NCBI GenBank assembly: GCA_015655125.1
Contig: JAATFP010000087.1
Span: 1-64,000, forward strand
Direction: 5' to 3'
DNA: 64,000 bases
Source of the DNA: Chitinophagales bacterium
GTDB taxonomy: Bacteria; Bacteroidota; Bacteroidia; Chitinophagales; Chitinophagaceae
The translations under genes and the position numbers were made by a program. The notes beneath the pieces are model-generated. The model had not been told where the DNA came from and searched no databases. It worked only from the letters and a program-made list of their open reading frames with translations. Of this stretch, positions 36,277 through 42,971 are shown one piece after another; positions within the stretch are counted from its first letter, which is position 1, and the number at the start of each line of letters is the position of its first letter.

Positions 36277-39200
36277 TTAATGTTTATCACGGTATCCTTT
36301 GTTCAGTTTTTCTTTTACAAGTTTTTCGCGTTCTTTTTCCGCCGTTGAAAAATCTGCGAAAGTTTTTACCTGCACCTGTCCCCGCGTTCCTATTCGGCCA
36401 TAACGCACAATCAACTTGTGTCCATCCGTTGCCACCTCCCAAAACTTGCTGCTGGTATCGTCTTTCCATTCAAGCCGGCGAAAGTTCAGGTCGTCATAAG
36501 CCGATGCAATCGGTTTGCTTTCCTGCCGGATAAACAATGTTCCGCCTTCTTCCGCCGCAATGTTTGATGGAGACGAACTCAATTCAACAAAGCTTTCTTC
36601 TGTTTCCTCTATTTCTTCCGGATTTTTTTCATGGAGCTTTTTTTCGATAAGCTCCATCACTCTATCAGGTTGATGCAGCCAATCCTTTCCGCTCACGAAT
36701 ATCATCTTCCAGCCAAAACTTTTAAGAATGGCGGGCCGTTGATAATATTGCTCCAATAAATTATCACTCGAATAATGCCTGTCATCATCCAGTAAAATAC
36801 TTAAAGTATATTGGTCATCCTGCGCATTTAATTTTACCGCCAGCGCTGATTTGAAATCCGATTGTCCAACATCCGGTGTAACCCGGTAACCTTTTTGTTC
36901 CAGCCTTTGTTTTATTTCTTTTAATACAATTGAATTCCCGGATCCTGAAATTATGCGCTCTTTTTTCAATACAAGGCCATCGAGTACAACCCTCGCCAGA
37001 TCCATGTTTCCAACACTCACCAATTCTGCATATTGAAGAAACCTGCGAAAATAATTTGCACCTTCATTATATTCATTTGTAATATTGAAATGTTTAATGC
37101 TTGAAACGATCGCCATATGTTTTTTGGCGCGGCTGAAAATAACATTTAATCTTTTTTCGCCGCCCTTCTTATTAATGGGGCCAAAATTCATGATCATTTT
37201 TTTTCTGCTGTCAAATCCATAACAAACACTCATGATGATGATGTCGCGTTCGTCACCTTGCACGTTTTCAAGATTTTTTACAAACAAGCCCGTAAACTGA
37301 TCTTCATCCGTCCGATCATAACTTTCTTCGAGTTGCTGCTCAAATACTTTGTCGGTTTGCGCCAGCGCAGTAAGCGCATCTTCAATCGTATGCTGTTGTT
37401 CCTGGCTGAACGCAACAATACCAACGCTTTCTTTGATATTTCTTTTTAATAGTTCCCGCACTAGCTGTGCAATGTAATCCGCCTCGTCCTGGTTATTTCT
37501 TTTTTCGTACACACTATCTGGATGAAAATGAAAACTGATGCTCCTGTCGAACAACGCATCGGCAAACTTTCCGGCATCTGCAATATTGTTTACGTCTATC
37601 GCAGGTTTCACAACATCATGTATTTGTTTATCCGGAATCGTAAGCAGGCCCGCATCGTAAAATGCGTGATTACTATAACTGATCAGTGTTTCATAGCGGC
37701 TGCGGTAATGCCAGCCGAGCATCACGCTGTCTAATTTTTTTGCTCCCTGCATCAACAAACTATCGGCATCATTGCTCAACAGTTCGTCTTCATCGTTCAG
37801 CCCGGCTGTAGCGATATCATCCGGATCTTCCGTTCTGGCGCTGAAAAAACTGGATGGCGGCATTTGCTTGTCGTCGCCCACAATCACCGTTTGCGGCGCG
37901 CGGTACAATGCAGGAACACCTTCTTCGAGGGTGATCTGACTGGCTTCATCAAAAATAATAATATCGAAAAAGGAGGTATCTACCGGCAAACTATCGCTCA
38001 CGCTTAGCGGACTCATCAGCCAAACCGGTTTCAGATCTTTCAGTACAGCGCCACTTTCTTTAGCCGTCAGTTCGCGTATACTTTTATAGCGCATGCTTTT
38101 GCCAAACTCATTTTCAAGTATTCTTCTTCCTTCGGAATAATTTTTCTTAAACTGTTTTTGTTCAGCATCCAGCTGGCTCACCGCCATATTGCTTAGTTCC
38201 ACATGTTGCAAAAAGCGCTGCCGGGTAATAGCTCTTACATATGCCGCATTGAGTTTCAATAATTTTTTATAATGTTGGCCGATCTGCTTAACCGAGGTTT
38301 CAAGCGCGTTCATATCAATGCCTGCAAAGATTTTTTGATGACGATAAATAGTACCAAGGGATTTATTTGCCATCGCCGCTTCCGCTTCCACGGGCGAAAG
38401 CGGAACGTTGCACAATGCTTTTTTGAGACCTGCCGGAAGGGAAGCAAACGAACGCAATGCCGGTAACAGTTCTTTCAGGCCATCGGTATTTAATGAAATA
38501 CTTTCAAGGTCATCGGAAAGATCGCGGAGTGTTTTTGTTTCGTAGTCATTGAATAACTGCTTCAGTTTTTTATCAAGATTATACAATTGATGATTGAATT
38601 TGCTCAAGCGGATAACCAATTCATTTGAATCCGGCCTTTGCAGCAAATAATCTATTTCCTGGTCGCCCTGCTTGCTTCGCAGCATTTCGATGCTTACATA
38701 AGTAAGATCTACATTGGCGATATTATATTTTTGCTGGAGTGACCTTTTTTCACCCGATACTTTTTCCGATGCAAGATATTCCTCTTGTAGTTGCTGTAAA
38801 ACCTTGCTGTATGCGGGCTTTACCTGGTGATTTTCAAATGCATAATGTTGCTCCAACTGTTTTTTCAATCTCCGCCATTCGCCGTTTAAAAAACTAAAGA
38901 AAGAATCTTCTTTCTCTTTTGCAATCGCCAAAGCCGCGCCTGTATCCTGTTCGCTAAATCGCTGCTTCCAGTTAATGTTCAAATCTTTTGCGTGTTCCAG
39001 CTCTTTTTCAAACCCCGAAAGTTGCCGCATCCTTTTATCGAAATCTTTCGCTTCCGGATTAGCAGTATTTACAAGACGAAGGTTATCGCTCTCTGCAAGC
39101 GGCAGCAACATCACTGCATCCTGAACCAGGTTTTTAATTTGCTCCAGCGTCTGTGAATGTTGCGGGGCAATATTTTTGGCTGCTAAAAAATCATCGAGTT

Positions 39201-41757
39201 CCTGCAACGATGTTTTCAGCTCACGCGTGAGTTCATCCAATAGTTGATGCGGTCTTTCAGAAACAAATAAACTATCATTTATTTTGCTAAATGGATGCTC
39301 CGCAAATTGAGGCTCCGCACCGCTTTCTTCCAATGCTGCACTTAGTTCCCTGATAGAATTTCCAAATTGTAACCAGTCTTTGTAGTTTGGCAGCAATTCT
39401 TCTTCCCTGGGTTGTAATTGTACATTATAGTTTTTCAATTCTATCACCCGCTCTATCAGGTTACGCAACCGGATACCGGTTTCGCTTTTAACATCATTAT
39501 TTGTAAAATGAAACTGGCGCAGCAATTCTACCTGCTCATTCATCTGTTGCAATTGTACCGTTCGTTTCAGGCTGATCTCATTGACACTCATTTTATTCCT
39601 TATAAAATCTTCATACGTCGCTTTTAGATTTTTGATAAATTCCCGCTTGTCGCCCTGGCTGTCGTGAATGTAACAGCATAATTCGTCCAGTTGTTGTTGC
39701 TTCAGTCTGAAATATACCACATCAAGCGCGGCGCGTTTTTCGCAAACAAACAATACGCTTTTTCCCCGTGCCGCGAAATCCGCGATAAGATTGGTAATCG
39801 TCTGGCTCTTGCCCGTTCCCGGCGGCCCCTGAATGATATAGCTTTCGCCCGTGCGGCCCTGAAGAATGGCTTTCGTTTGCGTAGGATCGGCGGTGATGAT
39901 ATGATACCAGTCGTCAGGTTTATTGAGATCAAATATTTTTTCCGAATGCTGTCTCGGTTTCTCACTAAACAACTGTTCAAATACCTTGTGTTCTGTTTTA
40001 TGATCGATCACATAATTGTAATCCCTCACAAGGCTCATCTTTTTGTAATTGAAATTTCCAAGCACCATGTTACAAACATCAAACTCCCAATGATATGGAT
40101 TGCTGCTACCCCCGGCCAGCTCAAACAGCTGTCGTTCCTTGCCGGTAGCTTCTCCTGTAAGATGATGCGAATTAAGCCTGATGTCGTCATTTACCAAAAA
40201 CTCCAGCAGGCTGGGCCTTGGTTGAACACGTTGCTTGAAAATTTCCAGCCCGAGCGGTTGGTAATTTTCCGTTTGATAACTATAAGCAATATTTTTGTAG
40301 CTGTCGAGCTGGCCATTATTCCTTCGCAACCGACGCCGGTAATTATTTACGGTTTGCCGGGCGATGCTGTGTACAAGTTTTATCTTTGGCTTGCCGGCAT
40401 ATTCCAGTGTGATGCCTTGCCCGGCGCCTTCGATCTGCGACCTTAATATTTCAAAGAACTGCGCCATGCTCATTTCATCCAGGTCAACGAAGTCCGGCAG
40501 TTTTATTCCGTACAGATCGCGCAAGAAATTAGCCAGCACCGGATTTACTTCTGCAACATTGTCTTTGATCGTTACTACGTAGTGATCTTCCTTAAGTTTT
40601 TTGTTTTTCTTTAATTCAACGGGCAACAACAACAGCGGACTTTGAATGCGTTCGTCTTTATCTTCGCGAAGATTGTTCCAGTTTAAAAATGCCGGTACAA
40701 GCTTTAACTGGCTAAAGCCGTATTCCTGCACATCGCGCTGCGCTTCGGTTCTGATCTTATCCAGTGATGACGGTAAATATAAATGATCTTCGAAGCGAAG
40801 GTATTTGTTAAGTAAAATGTCTTTCATGCCCGTAATCTTTCCGGCGATCTCGTTGTTCCAGCTGAACAACAGATCGGGCCGGATACTTTGATAATGCAAC
40901 ACCATCGGCACGCTGCTGACGGTGAGGTTTACAAAACGCATGTTAGGCTTGTAATACAACAGCCTGTTCCTGCGGCTCGTATCAAAGAGGCGGTTTCGCA
41001 ATTTGCTTAAAATATATTGACTGCGATTGGTGAGTTCTTTATTTACCCAACCGGCAACATTGCTGAGATCGGTTTGTTTTTCGGGATCGTAATCACGATA
41101 ATTGCGCAGGCGATTGATGATATCGTACAGATCGGCTGCACGTTTGCTGCGGTCAAGCTCTGTCATCTCTTTTATCAATGCGCCGATGGCCGGATGAATG
41201 CGGCTGTTGTGAAATACAGGGTTTGCACGCGTAGCAACGAAAGCTTCCAGATCATGTTCATCGTACAGGTCGAGGCTGAGCGCCATGCTGCCAAGGATCA
41301 GCCCAAGGCAAAAAATATCTGTTAATGCATCATGGTTACCAAGCATTATTTCATAACAAGAATAGCCGGGAACATAAGCCGGATGCTGTAAAGGCTCGTT
41401 TACCAAAAGATGTACATGCAGGTCTTCGCGCGATTGCATACCGGTATTCACATCCACATCAAGTTTGATGTTTCCGGTAATATTGAAATTTGCAGAGCGG
41501 ATCTTTTCAAATAATGCATTCACTTTTTGTAATGCATTTAAGGGCGCATGCGCAAAATTTTCATCAATATCAATATGCCTGTTTGTAATAACCAACGCTG
41601 GCTCTCTTTCAAAAGGTGCCACCAGCGCGGCTTCGTGAAACGAAATCACTTCTTCAAAAAGCGGCAATACAAATGCGATCACGTCATCGGTGGCATAATC
41701 GCCGTGCGAAAAACAATCTTCTAAAAACTCCTTGTATGTTTGAGCGGTTGTATTCAT
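36277..41757 (-). CDS. Giant kinase-like/DUF4011/SF1 helicase/nuclease/WGR protein
   Basis: An 1826-aa protein. Residues about 115-240 resemble the C-lobe of a protein kinase (YVPGYSCYEIMLGNHDALTD, FCLGLILG, ELDRSKRAADLYDIINRL) without N-lobe or HRD loop, so it is probably inactive. DUF4011 follows (LRNRLFDTSRRNRLLYY near 259), then a split SF1 helicase: Walker A GPPGTGKSQT near 645, DEAS near 1267 and helicase end motifs near 1500 (ENVQGDERDIIIMSV). A Vsr/MTES_1575-type nuclease-like domain lies at about 1596-1709 (LSILLDDDRHY, PAILKSFGWKMIFVSGKDWL) and a WGR domain closes the protein (KFWEVATDGHKLIVRYGRIG). Kinase plus COG1112-type helicase recalls Mokosh MkoA, but the nuclease/WGR end differs. 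It forms an operon with the M48 gene (2-bp gap). Confidence 0.85.
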   Translation of the reverse strand: MNTTAQTYKEFLEDCFSHGDYATDDVIAFVLPLFEEVISFHEAALVAPFEREPALVITNRHIDIDENFAHAPLNALQKVNALFEKIRSANFNITGNIKLDVDVNTGMQSREDLHVHLLVNEPLQHPAYVPGYSCYEIMLGNHDALTDIFCLGLILGSMALSLDLYDEHDLEAFVATRANPVFHNSRIHPAIGALIKEMTELDRSKRAADLYDIINRLRNYRDYDPEKQTDLSNVAGWVNKELTNRSQYILSKLRNRLFDTSRRNRLLYYKPNMRFVNLTVSSVPMVLHYQSIRPDLLFSWNNEIAGKITGMKDILLNKYLRFEDHLYLPSSLDKIRTEAQRDVQEYGFSQLKLVPAFLNWNNLREDKDERIQSPLLLLPVELKKNKKLKEDHYVVTIKDNVAEVNPVLANFLRDLYGIKLPDFVDLDEMSMAQFFEILRSQIEGAGQGITLEYAGKPKIKLVHSIARQTVNNYRRRLRRNNGQLDSYKNIAYSYQTENYQPLGLEIFKQRVQPRPSLLEFLVNDDIRLNSHHLTGEATGKERQLFELAGGSSNPYHWEFDVCNMVLGNFNYKKMSLVRDYNYVIDHKTEHKVFEQLFSEKPRQHSEKIFDLNKPDDWYHIITADPTQTKAILQGRTGESYIIQGPPGTGKSQTITNLIADFAARGKSVLFVCEKRAALDVVYFRLKQQQLDELCCYIHDSQGDKREFIKNLKATYEDFIRNKMSVNEISLKRTVQLQQMNEQVELLRQFHFTNNDVKSETGIRLRNLIERVIELKNYNVQLQPREEELLPNYKDWLQFGNSIRELSAALEESGAEPQFAEHPFSKINDSLFVSERPHQLLDELTRELKTSLQELDDFLAAKNIAPQHSQTLEQIKNLVQDAVMLLPLAESDNLRLVNTANPEAKDFDKRMRQLSGFEKELEHAKDLNINWKQRFSEQDTGAALAIAKEKEDSFFSFLNGEWRRLKKQLEQHYAFENHQVKPAYSKVLQQLQEEYLASEKVSGEKRSLQQKYNIANVDLTYVSIEMLRSKQGDQEIDYLLQRPDSNELVIRLSKFNHQLYNLDKKLKQLFNDYETKTLRDLSDDLESISLNTDGLKELLPALRSFASLPAGLKKALCNVPLSPVEAEAAMANKSLGTIYRHQKIFAGIDMNALETSVKQIGQHYKKLLKLNAAYVRAITRQRFLQHVELSNMAVSQLDAEQKQFKKNYSEGRRILENEFGKSMRYKSIRELTAKESGAVLKDLKPVWLMSPLSVSDSLPVDTSFFDIIIFDEASQITLEEGVPALYRAPQTVIVGDDKQMPPSSFFSARTEDPDDIATAGLNDEDELLSNDADSLLMQGAKKLDSVMLGWHYRSRYETLISYSNHAFYDAGLLTIPDKQIHDVVKPAIDVNNIADAGKFADALFDRSISFHFHPDSVYEKRNNQDEADYIAQLVRELLKRNIKESVGIVAFSQEQQHTIEDALTALAQTDKVFEQQLEESYDRTDEDQFTGLFVKNLENVQGDERDIIIMSVCYGFDSRKKMIMNFGPINKKGGEKRLNVIFSRAKKHMAIVSSIKHFNITNEYNEGANYFRRFLQYAELVSVGNMDLARVVLDGLVLKKERIISGSGNSIVLKEIKQRLEQKGYRVTPDVGQSDFKSALAVKLNAQDDQYTLSILLDDDRHYSSDNLLEQYYQRPAILKSFGWKMIFVSGKDWLHQPDRVMELIEKKLHEKNPEEIEETEESFVELSSSPSNIAAEEGGTLFIRQESKPIASAYDDLNFRRLEWKDDTSSKFWEVATDGHKLIVRYGRIGTRGQVQVKTFADFSTAEKEREKLVKEKLNKGYRDKH

Positions 41758-41759
41758 GG

Positions 41760-42971
41760 CTATTCGTAAATCTGCTCGCCTTCATTTTCTTTTACTTCAT
41801 TAAAAGCGCTGAGCGTTTTGTTTCTATGTTGCTGTATTTTTTTATCGCTGAATTTCAATTCTTTTTTAACGATGGCTTCGAAGGTTTCTTTTAAAAAAAC
41901 ATATTCGGAAAACTGGAATGCCCAACCGAAAGGAATCTCTTCCAGCATGGGATCGATCAACACAAAATCCAGCAGTACGTAGCATAGATACTCTTTGATG
42001 CTGGAATGGGCGCCTGATATTTTTGCAGAGAATCCAGGTAGCAGTAAAACATTTTCATCGTTCCTGAAGTCGGCAAAATAATTTTTTGCCTGACTGATGA
42101 CCATTGTACTTTGGAACCATTTCGGCTTAAGGAACAATTGCAGAAATGTTCTTGTAATCGCGGATAGCTCCTGTTGTTTGAAAATGTCCAGCTGATCTAT
42201 ATTCATAGAACCTTCGATCATTTCGATAATGGCGGTTTCCGCAGCTTCGCCGTTCTGGTGCCAGAGTTGGAGGGCTTTTGCGCGGATATAATTTTCCGGA
42301 TGCGAAAAGCTGGCGTCTTTGATGTTGCCATTTGCAAGGATCTCTTCCGTTTGTTTGAGATAAGCGTCTGCACTTACTTTTTCCAGGCCGGTTGCGGCTT
42401 TCACCAGCCCGCTGATAACGGGTGCCGTTTGCTCCAACACAACGTATGCGCCACGGTCGCAGAATATTTCAGTATATAATCTGTAAAGGCGCGCTGTTTC
42501 GTAATAGGCCGCTTCTGTTTGATAATTGTTGGCAATAGCGTGGATAATACGGTCGGCGATCTCCAGGTCACCATCAAGCATGCTGTACAATTTTACATGA
42601 GCGAGTTCATGTGCAAGTATGCCCAGCAATTCTTTTTCATCCAATAAAGAAATGATGCGCCCACTGAAAACAATATGTGCCTCACTGTTCAAAAAAATAA
42701 TACTTGCATTAAGTTCGTCGGTGTACTGTGCCTGGTAAACCGTCACAGGCAGCCCGGTGAGCGAAAGCGCAGCTTTGGCTGTATCAACAGCATTGTATAT
42801 ATGTTTATCGGCTGCCGGGTCAAATTTATAGGTGTTTTTTAGCAGTCCCGTCTTATATTGTTCCAACTGATCGACCTTGTTATTGGCGGCGGCAAAAAAA
42901 TCCCAGGTCTTGGATTGTTGCCTAAAATGATCACGAACCTTGAGATGATAGGGCAAAGAATTCAGGAACAT
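41760..42971 (-). CDS. M48-like zinc metallopeptidase
   Basis: A 403-aa protein. The zinc motif HExxH appears in GILAHELAHVKLYS (near residue 120), with a third ligand in YTEIFCDRGAYV, the usual E-x3-D spacing of M48 peptidases. No membrane segments or signal are obvious, so it is probably cytoplasmic, unlike HtpX or Ste24. It ends 2 bp before the ATG of the giant helicase, so the two are one transcript. A role as a protease partner or activator of that protein is inferred. The ATG at 42971 (MFLNSLPYHLKVRDHF) is the natural start. Confidence 0.8.
   Translation of the reverse strand: MFLNSLPYHLKVRDHFRQQSKTWDFFAAANNKVDQLEQYKTGLLKNTYKFDPAADKHIYNAVDTAKAALSLTGLPVTVYQAQYTDELNASIIFLNSEAHIVFSGRIISLLDEKELLGILAHELAHVKLYSMLDGDLEIADRIIHAIANNYQTEAAYYETARLYRLYTEIFCDRGAYVVLEQTAPVISGLVKAATGLEKVSADAYLKQTEEILANGNIKDASFSHPENYIRAKALQLWHQNGEAAETAIIEMIEGSMNIDQLDIFKQQELSAITRTFLQLFLKPKWFQSTMVISQAKNYFADFRNDENVLLLPGFSAKISGAHSSIKEYLCYVLLDFVLIDPMLEEIPFGWAFQFSEYVFLKETFEAIVKKELKFSDKKIQQHRNKTLSAFNEVKENEGEQIYE

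What the first reader, a model, noticed from the sequence alone, without database searches (positions are those of the whole stretch)
36277..42971. Two-gene operon: M48-type peptidase plus giant kinase-like/helicase/nuclease/WGR protein
Seen directly: a 403-aa protein with HELAH and a third zinc ligand ends 2 bp before an 1826-aa protein with a degenerate kinase C-lobe, DUF4011, SF1 helicase motifs, a Vsr-like nuclease region and a terminal WGR domain. Known: kinase plus COG1112 helicase occurs in Mokosh defence, and WGR is a nucleic-acid-related domain. Inferred: nuclease, helicase and protease together suggest an anti-phage or DNA-integrity system with protease-controlled activation. I know of no named system with this pairing.
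Basis: partly seen in the sequence, partly recalled or inferred. Interest (0 to 1): 0.78.

Follow-up and report, generated by a model that had tools for sequence, protein, structure and literature searches.

The report
Mobile helicase–metallopeptidase gene pair
Some bacteria share a two-gene unit that pairs a giant helicase-like protein, whose kinase and nuclease parts look dead, with a metal-dependent peptidase that looks intact, suggesting a DNA-triggered protein-cutting system for which I found no name.

Summary
The pair is real: an M48-type peptidase (403 aa) ends 2 bp before an 1826-aa protein with a kinase C-lobe, DUF4011, SF1 helicase, MTES_1575 nuclease fold and WGR. It is a conserved unit: of 294 genomes of the window's family, 18 have the peptidase, and all 18 have the big gene downstream on the same strand (17 directly); 3 more carry the big gene alone. 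The pair moves: the two gene trees track each other (r 0.92) better than rpoB (0.60 and 0.79 in 19 genomes, about 0.3 in 13 divergent ones), and in another genus the two genes fill one gap that is empty in 6 of 9 genomes. Its catalytic Asp and Glu are replaced in 26 of 26 members; the Asp is kept in 27 of 27 related helicases examined. The kinase lacks its N-lobe and HRD Asp. Helicase motifs (26 of 26) and the peptidase zinc site (25 of 25) are intact. Best reading: a helicase sensor licensing a peptidase effector, probably anti-phage; crosslink repair is the main rival. It scores well below the cut-offs of the nearest anti-phage models (ProA, Hhe). No clear defence island was seen, and no function was tested.

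The parts
41760..42971 (-). M48-type (gluzincin) metallopeptidase gene, 403 aa; open frame extends to 43070
   Evidence: Pfam M48 in 10 of 10 homologues scanned
42597..42611 (-). HELAH zinc-binding motif (H121, E122, H125)
   Evidence: H, E, H invariant in 25 of 25 peptidases
42468..42470 (-). E168, predicted third zinc ligand, in TEIFCDRGA
   Evidence: E168, C171 and D172 invariant in 25 of 25; ligand role inferred from M48 (recalled)
36277..41757 (-). Giant helicase-family protein gene, 1826 aa
41092..41757 (-). Pseudokinase: kinase C-lobe only, residues 1-222, no N-lobe, HRD Asp missing
   Evidence: model; PknB 93-278 Z 14.8; no Asp at positions 46-49 in 26 of 26 (HRD placed by eye)
40522..40992 (-). 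DUF4011 domain, residues 256-412
   Evidence: Pfam
37099..39888 (-). SF1 helicase core (AAA_11 from 624 to AAA_12 end 1553) with long insert
   Evidence: Pfam; motif I (643-654) identical in 26 of 26; D1270/E1271, Q1298 and R1543 invariant in 26 of 26
36634..36921 (-). MTES_1575/Vsr-like nuclease fold, predicted dead: Asp replaced at 1638, Glu replaced at 1655
   Evidence: Pfam
36283..36474 (-). C-terminal WGR domain, residues 1762-1825
   Evidence: Pfam; WGR-type pattern in 24 of 27 members examined

Best explanation
A two-gene, horizontally moving unit in which the large SF1 helicase acts as a DNA sensor and scaffold and the metallopeptidase is the only intact effector enzyme. Proposed working: the helicase (perhaps with WGR) engages foreign or damaged DNA ends; ATP-driven movement changes the complex; the peptidase is then released or switched on and cuts host or phage proteins, stopping infection, most likely by abortive infection. 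Shown here: conserved linkage, co-inheritance and joint transfer; intact helicase motifs and zinc site; loss of kinase and nuclease catalytic residues. Inferred: physical complex, DNA as trigger, peptidase as effector, phage as target. It would work like Hachiman (a sensor helicase holding an effector in check) but with proteolysis in place of DNA cutting.
For: Linkage: peptidase in 18 of 294 family genomes, big-protein N-terminus in 21 of 294 plus a partial match in G684; same strand and downstream in 18 of 18, 17 directly and one with a 596-aa gene between. In 395 phylum genomes strong matches to each occur in the same 3 genomes. Co-inheritance: pep-big distance correlation 0.92, partial 0.92 given rpoB, n 19. 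Transfer: in 13 divergent genomes pep-rpoB 0.29 and big-rpoB 0.31; 3 occupied and 6 empty sites in 9 genomes of one genus. Dead nuclease: 26 of 26 against Asp kept in 27 of 27 relatives examined. Live helicase 26 of 26 and peptidase 25 of 25. The peptidase profile finds nothing (E up to 1) in ORFs of 15 regions around relatives that keep the nuclease Asp (upstream side not visible in one, L175). Closest models: PDC-S37 697 bits, ProA 682, Hhe 446.
Against: Three big genes (G546, G666, G463) have no peptidase in the genome at E 1e-8 and no recognisable remnant in the 19 kb around them (best tblastn E 0.005, not beside the gene), so the peptidase is not always needed. rpoB correlations over all 19 genomes are not low (0.60, 0.79), so part of the history is vertical. 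Flanking genes are largely ordinary. The pair was not found in viral contigs, nor the peptidase in plasmids. The sister protein G684 already lacks the nuclease Asp with no peptidase nearby, so nuclease loss did not simply follow peptidase gain. WGR is missing in 3 of 27. Two relatives have an HExxH-pattern protein nearby (L186 next door, L176 two genes off), though neither matches the peptidase profile. No complex was modelled; the peptidase fold match is moderate (Z 9.4; no Foldseek hit at E 0.001).
Confidence: 0.48

Rival explanations
1. DNA-protein crosslink repair or genome maintenance: the helicase moves along DNA, unfolds a stuck or crosslinked protein, and the peptidase removes it, as SPRTN is thought to work with helicases in animals (recalled).
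For: The SprT-like Pfam model also matches all 10 peptidases scanned (E 0.01), though below cut-off for the window's; SPRTN is among the weak fold hits (6mdw, Z 4.5); WGR as a DNA-end-type domain (recalled); no clear defence island; no viral or plasmid carriage of the peptidase found.
Against: Patchy (18 of 294; full-length match in 2 of 36 genomes of the window's genus) and transferred, more like an accessory conflict system; the zinc site is of the Glu type, not the His type of SprT (third ligand of SprT recalled); nearest models are anti-phage.
Confidence: 0.2
2. Protease-controlled activation: the peptidase cuts the big protein or an inhibitor to switch the helicase on, and the helicase is the effector.
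For: Peptidase upstream and tightly co-inherited; the 3 solo big genes could be constitutive versions.
Against: The big protein keeps no recognised effector active site apart from the helicase.
Confidence: 0.16
3. An ordinary nuclease-helicase defence protein in which other residues serve catalysis; the peptidase is an accessory.
For: The fold is retained, with GQS, DD, EQY and KDW residues invariant in 9 of 9, and one Asp of the motif is kept (D1657, 26 of 26); another group of relatives has lost the Glu alone (6 of 27).
Against: Both canonical residues are replaced, by Ser/His/Ala/Thr and by Leu/Met/Ile, in 26 of 26.
Confidence: 0.08

Closest known systems
PDC-S37 (PADLOC candidate) / ProA (NCBIfam NF058533)
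   Same: Helicase and nuclease-like region: best stretch 555-1722 (697 bits) and 563-1733 (682 bits)
   Different: ProA cut-off of 1500 not met; the best stretches leave out the pseudokinase and WGR (a second stretch was counted but its place is not shown); no paper describing ProA found
Hhe (DUF4011 helicase)
   Same: DUF4011 protein by name; 446 bits, best stretch 1204-1731
   Different: cut-off of 2000 not met; Hhe as a single-protein nuclease system is recalled, and its partners were not examined
Mokosh (MkoA/MkoC)
   Same: helicase region matches, 109 and 76 bits; kinase link with Mokosh recalled
   Different: kinase here is a C-lobe remnant without the catalytic Asp; peptidase partner
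Hachiman (HamAB)
   Same: working analogy: sensor helicase plus separate effector (passages of PMC12278908)
   Different: effector HamA is a nuclease, and HamB an SF2 helicase (partly recalled); no homology shown
M48 peptidases (HtpX, ZMPSTE24, BepA)
   Same: HExxH plus Glu; M48 Pfam hit in 10 of 10; best folds ZMPSTE24 Z 9.4 and BepA Z 8.9
   Different: weak sequence match (33.4 bits); extra helical C-terminal half, barely covered by the fold search

Membership tests
Peptidase family M48 | Pfam M48 score over curated cut-off | tested here: met
   33.4 bits against 20.3; 10 of 10 homologues match at E 0.01
Peptidase family M48 | HExxH plus downstream Glu | tested here: met
   H121, E122, H125, E168 in 25 of 25
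Peptidase family M48 | Fold of a known M48 structure | tested here: inconclusive
   ZMPSTE24 Z 9.4, rmsd 4.0 over 184; Foldseek gave nothing at E 0.001
SprT/SPRTN | SprT-like Pfam over cut-off and third His ligand shortly after HExxH (recalled) | tested here: not met
   18.8 bits against 25.6; invariant His only at 9, 121, 125 and 224
ProA (NF058533) | equivalog cut-off 1500 bits | tested here: not met
   682 bits; all 9 members of A2 match the model at E 1e-20
Hhe (NF042953) | equivalog cut-off 2000 bits | tested here: not met
   446 bits
PDC-S37 (PADLOC) | profile match over the whole model length | tested here: inconclusive
   best stretch 216-1352 of 1550; two stretches counted, only the best is placed; no cut-off given
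Mokosh | kinase domain with catalytic residues together with helicase (recalled) | tested here: not met
   C-lobe only, HRD Asp absent in 26 of 26
MTES_1575/Vsr-like nuclease | Pfam fold score over cut-off | tested here: met
   52.5 bits against 38.2
MTES_1575/Vsr-like nuclease | catalytic Asp and Glu | tested here: not met
   0 of 26 keep either; Asp 27 of 27 and Glu 21 of 27 in relatives examined
SF1 helicase (AAA_11/AAA_12) | motifs I, II, III, V, VI | tested here: met
   key residues invariant in 26 of 26
Anti-phage defence system | protection from phage | not testable with these tools
   no experiment possible
Anti-phage defence system | lies in defence islands | tested here: inconclusive
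   85 of 102 listed flanking proteins (two genes each side) scanned; 74 PADLOC families matched at E 1e-5, 25 shown, each in at most 4 proteins; Pfam shows mostly ordinary domains, 25 of 105 families shown

The most novel reading that the evidence does not exclude
A helicase-gated protease: a DNA-sensing SF1 helicase whose own kinase and nuclease folds have died and serve as scaffolds, with effector function carried by a separate metallopeptidase. It would be a new mechanistic class, either of anti-phage immunity acting by proteolysis or of bacterial helicase-coupled DNA-protein crosslink removal.
Probability: 0.45. Interest if true: 0.85.

Novelty: new variant of a known kind. Interest (0 to 1): 0.66.

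Why it matters
Helicases with DUF4011 and a nuclease-like tail are widespread accessory proteins usually read as helicase-nucleases. This family is a branch where both other enzyme folds have lost their catalytic residues while a metallopeptidase has mostly been kept beside it through repeated transfer. If the peptidase is the effector, it would add proteolysis driven by a DNA-sensing helicase to the known ways bacteria respond to foreign or damaged DNA, and give a simple two-gene system to test it in.

Tried and rejected
Nuclease-active reading: disfavoured after comparing 26 members with 27 relatives. Full kinase: rejected, the N-lobe is absent. SprT membership: below cut-off and no nearby conserved His. 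Prophage or plasmid carriage: viral-contig scans with P0002, A1 and A2 found nothing; peptidase not matched at E 1e-5 in 72,556 plasmid records; the big protein has only partial matches under 60% identity there (432 records, none covering 80%) and one phage-record match. PHROGs gave only weak helicase and WGR matches and none for the peptidase; the viral structure library gave no match at E 0.001 for the peptidase. Defence island: none clear, but only two genes each side were scanned and only part of the result rows is shown. Peptidase remnants beside the three solo big genes: none; best tblastn E 0.12, 0.030 and 0.005, none beside the gene (one search showed cut lists). Clean empty site in the window's own genus: not found; in 7 loci of congeners (6 genomes at 37% identity or more, one at 29%) with the neighbouring 387-aa gene, rplM is not within the 1.5 kb or less of flank held, and the regions fetched were not analysed. 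Promoters: one Bacteroidota-like pattern gave nothing; the sigma-70 scan was at chance level. Literature: (10 of 10 searches) listed no paper on a DUF4011 helicase with a metallopeptidase partner, nor one explaining ProA; many papers are outside that library. PMC10250203, PMC12278908, PMC11291487 and PMC12839542 were seen as passages only; all others as search listings.

Rows dropped before counts: from the 26-member column counts, L128 (gene split in two; its nuclease part is also dead), L125 (sister), L043 and L126 (cut by contig end), and L135 and L141 (same genomes as L038 and L044). The 25 peptidases leave out G738 (L240), found later. In one search G469's big protein was dropped, G714's is the 1234-aa piece and G576 had no full rpoB. 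The 27 relatives are the best-scoring of 61 genomes outside the group that matched. Of 102 flanking proteins 17 were left out of A5 (16 from four loci of one genus sharing a context, one from L039). Of 18 peptidase genomes, G576's region was not fetched; its adjacency comes from the coordinates and from L039.

Full report
The big gene is 36277-41757 (-), 1826 aa, and the peptidase gene ends at 41760, two bases before it. Pfam confirms DUF4011, the two helicase halves, the MTES_1575 nuclease family, WGR, and M48 for the peptidase. The kinase-like N-terminus is invisible to Pfam but clear in a model: residues 1-222 align with PknB from residue 93 on, so the N-lobe is missing.

The pair is a real unit. 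A genome-contig scan with the peptidase gave 9 loci, and all 9 have the big gene downstream on the same strand (one has a 596-aa gene between, one is cut by the contig end). In 294 sampled genomes of the window's family, 18 have the peptidase at E 1e-8 or better and 22 match the N-terminal alignment of the big protein at E 0.001; of these G684 matches only at residues 242-282. All 18 peptidases have the big gene downstream on the same strand, 17 directly. G546, G666 and G463 carry the big gene without it. In 395 genomes drawn from the phylum, 84 match the peptidase profile, but 81 of these are weak matches of at most 37 bits; the 3 strong ones are the same 3 genomes that have strong N-terminal matches. 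Of 25 loci with both genes, all have them on one strand, and all but L044 have them at most 117 bp apart, counting the first piece of L128's split gene.

The unit moves. Only the window and one other of 36 genomes of its genus have a full-length match. Distances in the two gene trees agree (r 0.92, 0 of 2000 permutations as high, n 19), also after allowing for rpoB (partial 0.92). Against rpoB the values are 0.60 and 0.79 for all 19 (3 and 0 of 2000 permutations as high); after leaving out two outlying genomes and four close relatives they fall to 0.29 and 0.31 (140 and 92 of 2000 as high, n 13), while pep-big stays at 0.94. In a second family of the class (genus g40) the two genes sit between an NrtR-type regulator gene and the next gene (a PRPP-synthetase-like protein, named from Pfam family counts and by eye). 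Of 31 genomes searched there 8 have that next gene; with G259 that makes 9 genomes compared: 3 (G231, G259, G738) have the pair and 6 have the flanking genes 69-78 bp apart with nothing between. The occupied sites keep the same intergenic sequence after the pair, so the inserted unit is just these two genes.

What still looks functional. Helicase motif I is identical, and key residues of motifs II, III, V and VI are invariant, in 26 of 26 members. The peptidase H121, E122, H125 and E168 are invariant in 25 of 25. In the kinase part the HRD Asp is missing in 26 of 26 (placed by eye). In the nuclease part the Asp of the (I/L/V)D(I/L) motif is Ser, His, Ala or Thr and the Glu of IECDG is Leu, Met or Ile in 26 of 26. 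Among 27 related helicases, the best-scoring of 61 other genomes matched, the Asp is kept in 27 and the Glu in 21, so the Glu can be lost alone while the Asp loss marks this group. A tree of the helicase-nuclease core puts the group and G684 together (28 sequences, support 0.94, midpoint rooted). G684 has no pseudokinase match, WGR or peptidase and yet has lost the Asp, so nuclease loss probably came before the peptidase was recruited; this speaks against a simple swap of one effector for another.

Controls around relatives. In 15 regions around relatives that keep the nuclease Asp, an HExxH pattern occurs in two: a protein next to the big gene in L186 and one two genes away in L176. The peptidase profile matches no ORF in any of the 15 regions at E 1. 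The upstream side is not visible in L175.

Function. The intact enzymes recognised are the helicase and the peptidase, so I read the unit as a helicase that senses DNA and licenses proteolysis. Hachiman is the best mechanistic analogue: a sensor helicase restrains and then activates an effector on DNA damage (passages, PMC12278908). Defence is favoured by the nearest models (PDC-S37, ProA, Hhe, MkoA), the patchy spread and the transfer. Against it are largely ordinary neighbours (85 of 102 flanking proteins scanned, 25 of 74 PADLOC rows shown), no match in viral contigs and the three solo genes. Repair of DNA-protein crosslinks is the main rival. Membership in ProA, Hhe, SprT or Mokosh is not met; the peptidase meets M48 by sequence, with a moderate fold match (Z 9.4).

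Ferruginibacter sp. HRS2-29 (L037) has ribosomal proteins L13, S9 and S2 94-98% identical to the window's and shares the flank on the DUF2157 side.

Noticed in passing
L079, L080, L240 (genus g40) against L239, L241-L245: The pair interrupts an NrtR - PRPP-synthetase-like gene order followed in several genomes by NADAR and other NAD- or ADP-ribose-related genes (partly named by eye); insertion is at the end of the NrtR gene, just before an NrtR-box-like repeat (box recalled). PADLOC calls the NADAR protein PDC-M42C.
   Followed up: yes
L125:6407-10558 (G684): Sister protein of 1383 aa without pseudokinase match, WGR or peptidase, nuclease Asp replaced by Pro, next to a PAS histidine kinase and a response regulator.
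   Followed up: partly
L128:9509-14911 (G714): Big gene split into ORFs of 549 and 1234 aa, the break lying before the helicase core; natural split or sequencing error not decided.
   Followed up: no
L127, L131, L132: Three of 27 big proteins end after the nuclease-like fold and lack WGR, yet keep the peptidase partner.
   Followed up: partly
L044:4954-6744: A 596-aa protein with a type IX secretion sorting tail (Por_Secre_tail) lies between peptidase and big gene.
   Followed up: partly
L146, L150-L153, L155: Another group of related helicases (open frames 1869-1985 aa) keeps the nuclease Asp but has lost the Glu, a second possible route to a weak or dead nuclease.
   Followed up: no
window 42456-42461 (peptidase C171, D172): A Cys-Asp pair just after the zinc-ligand Glu is invariant in 25 of 25 peptidases; role of the Cys unknown.
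   Followed up: no
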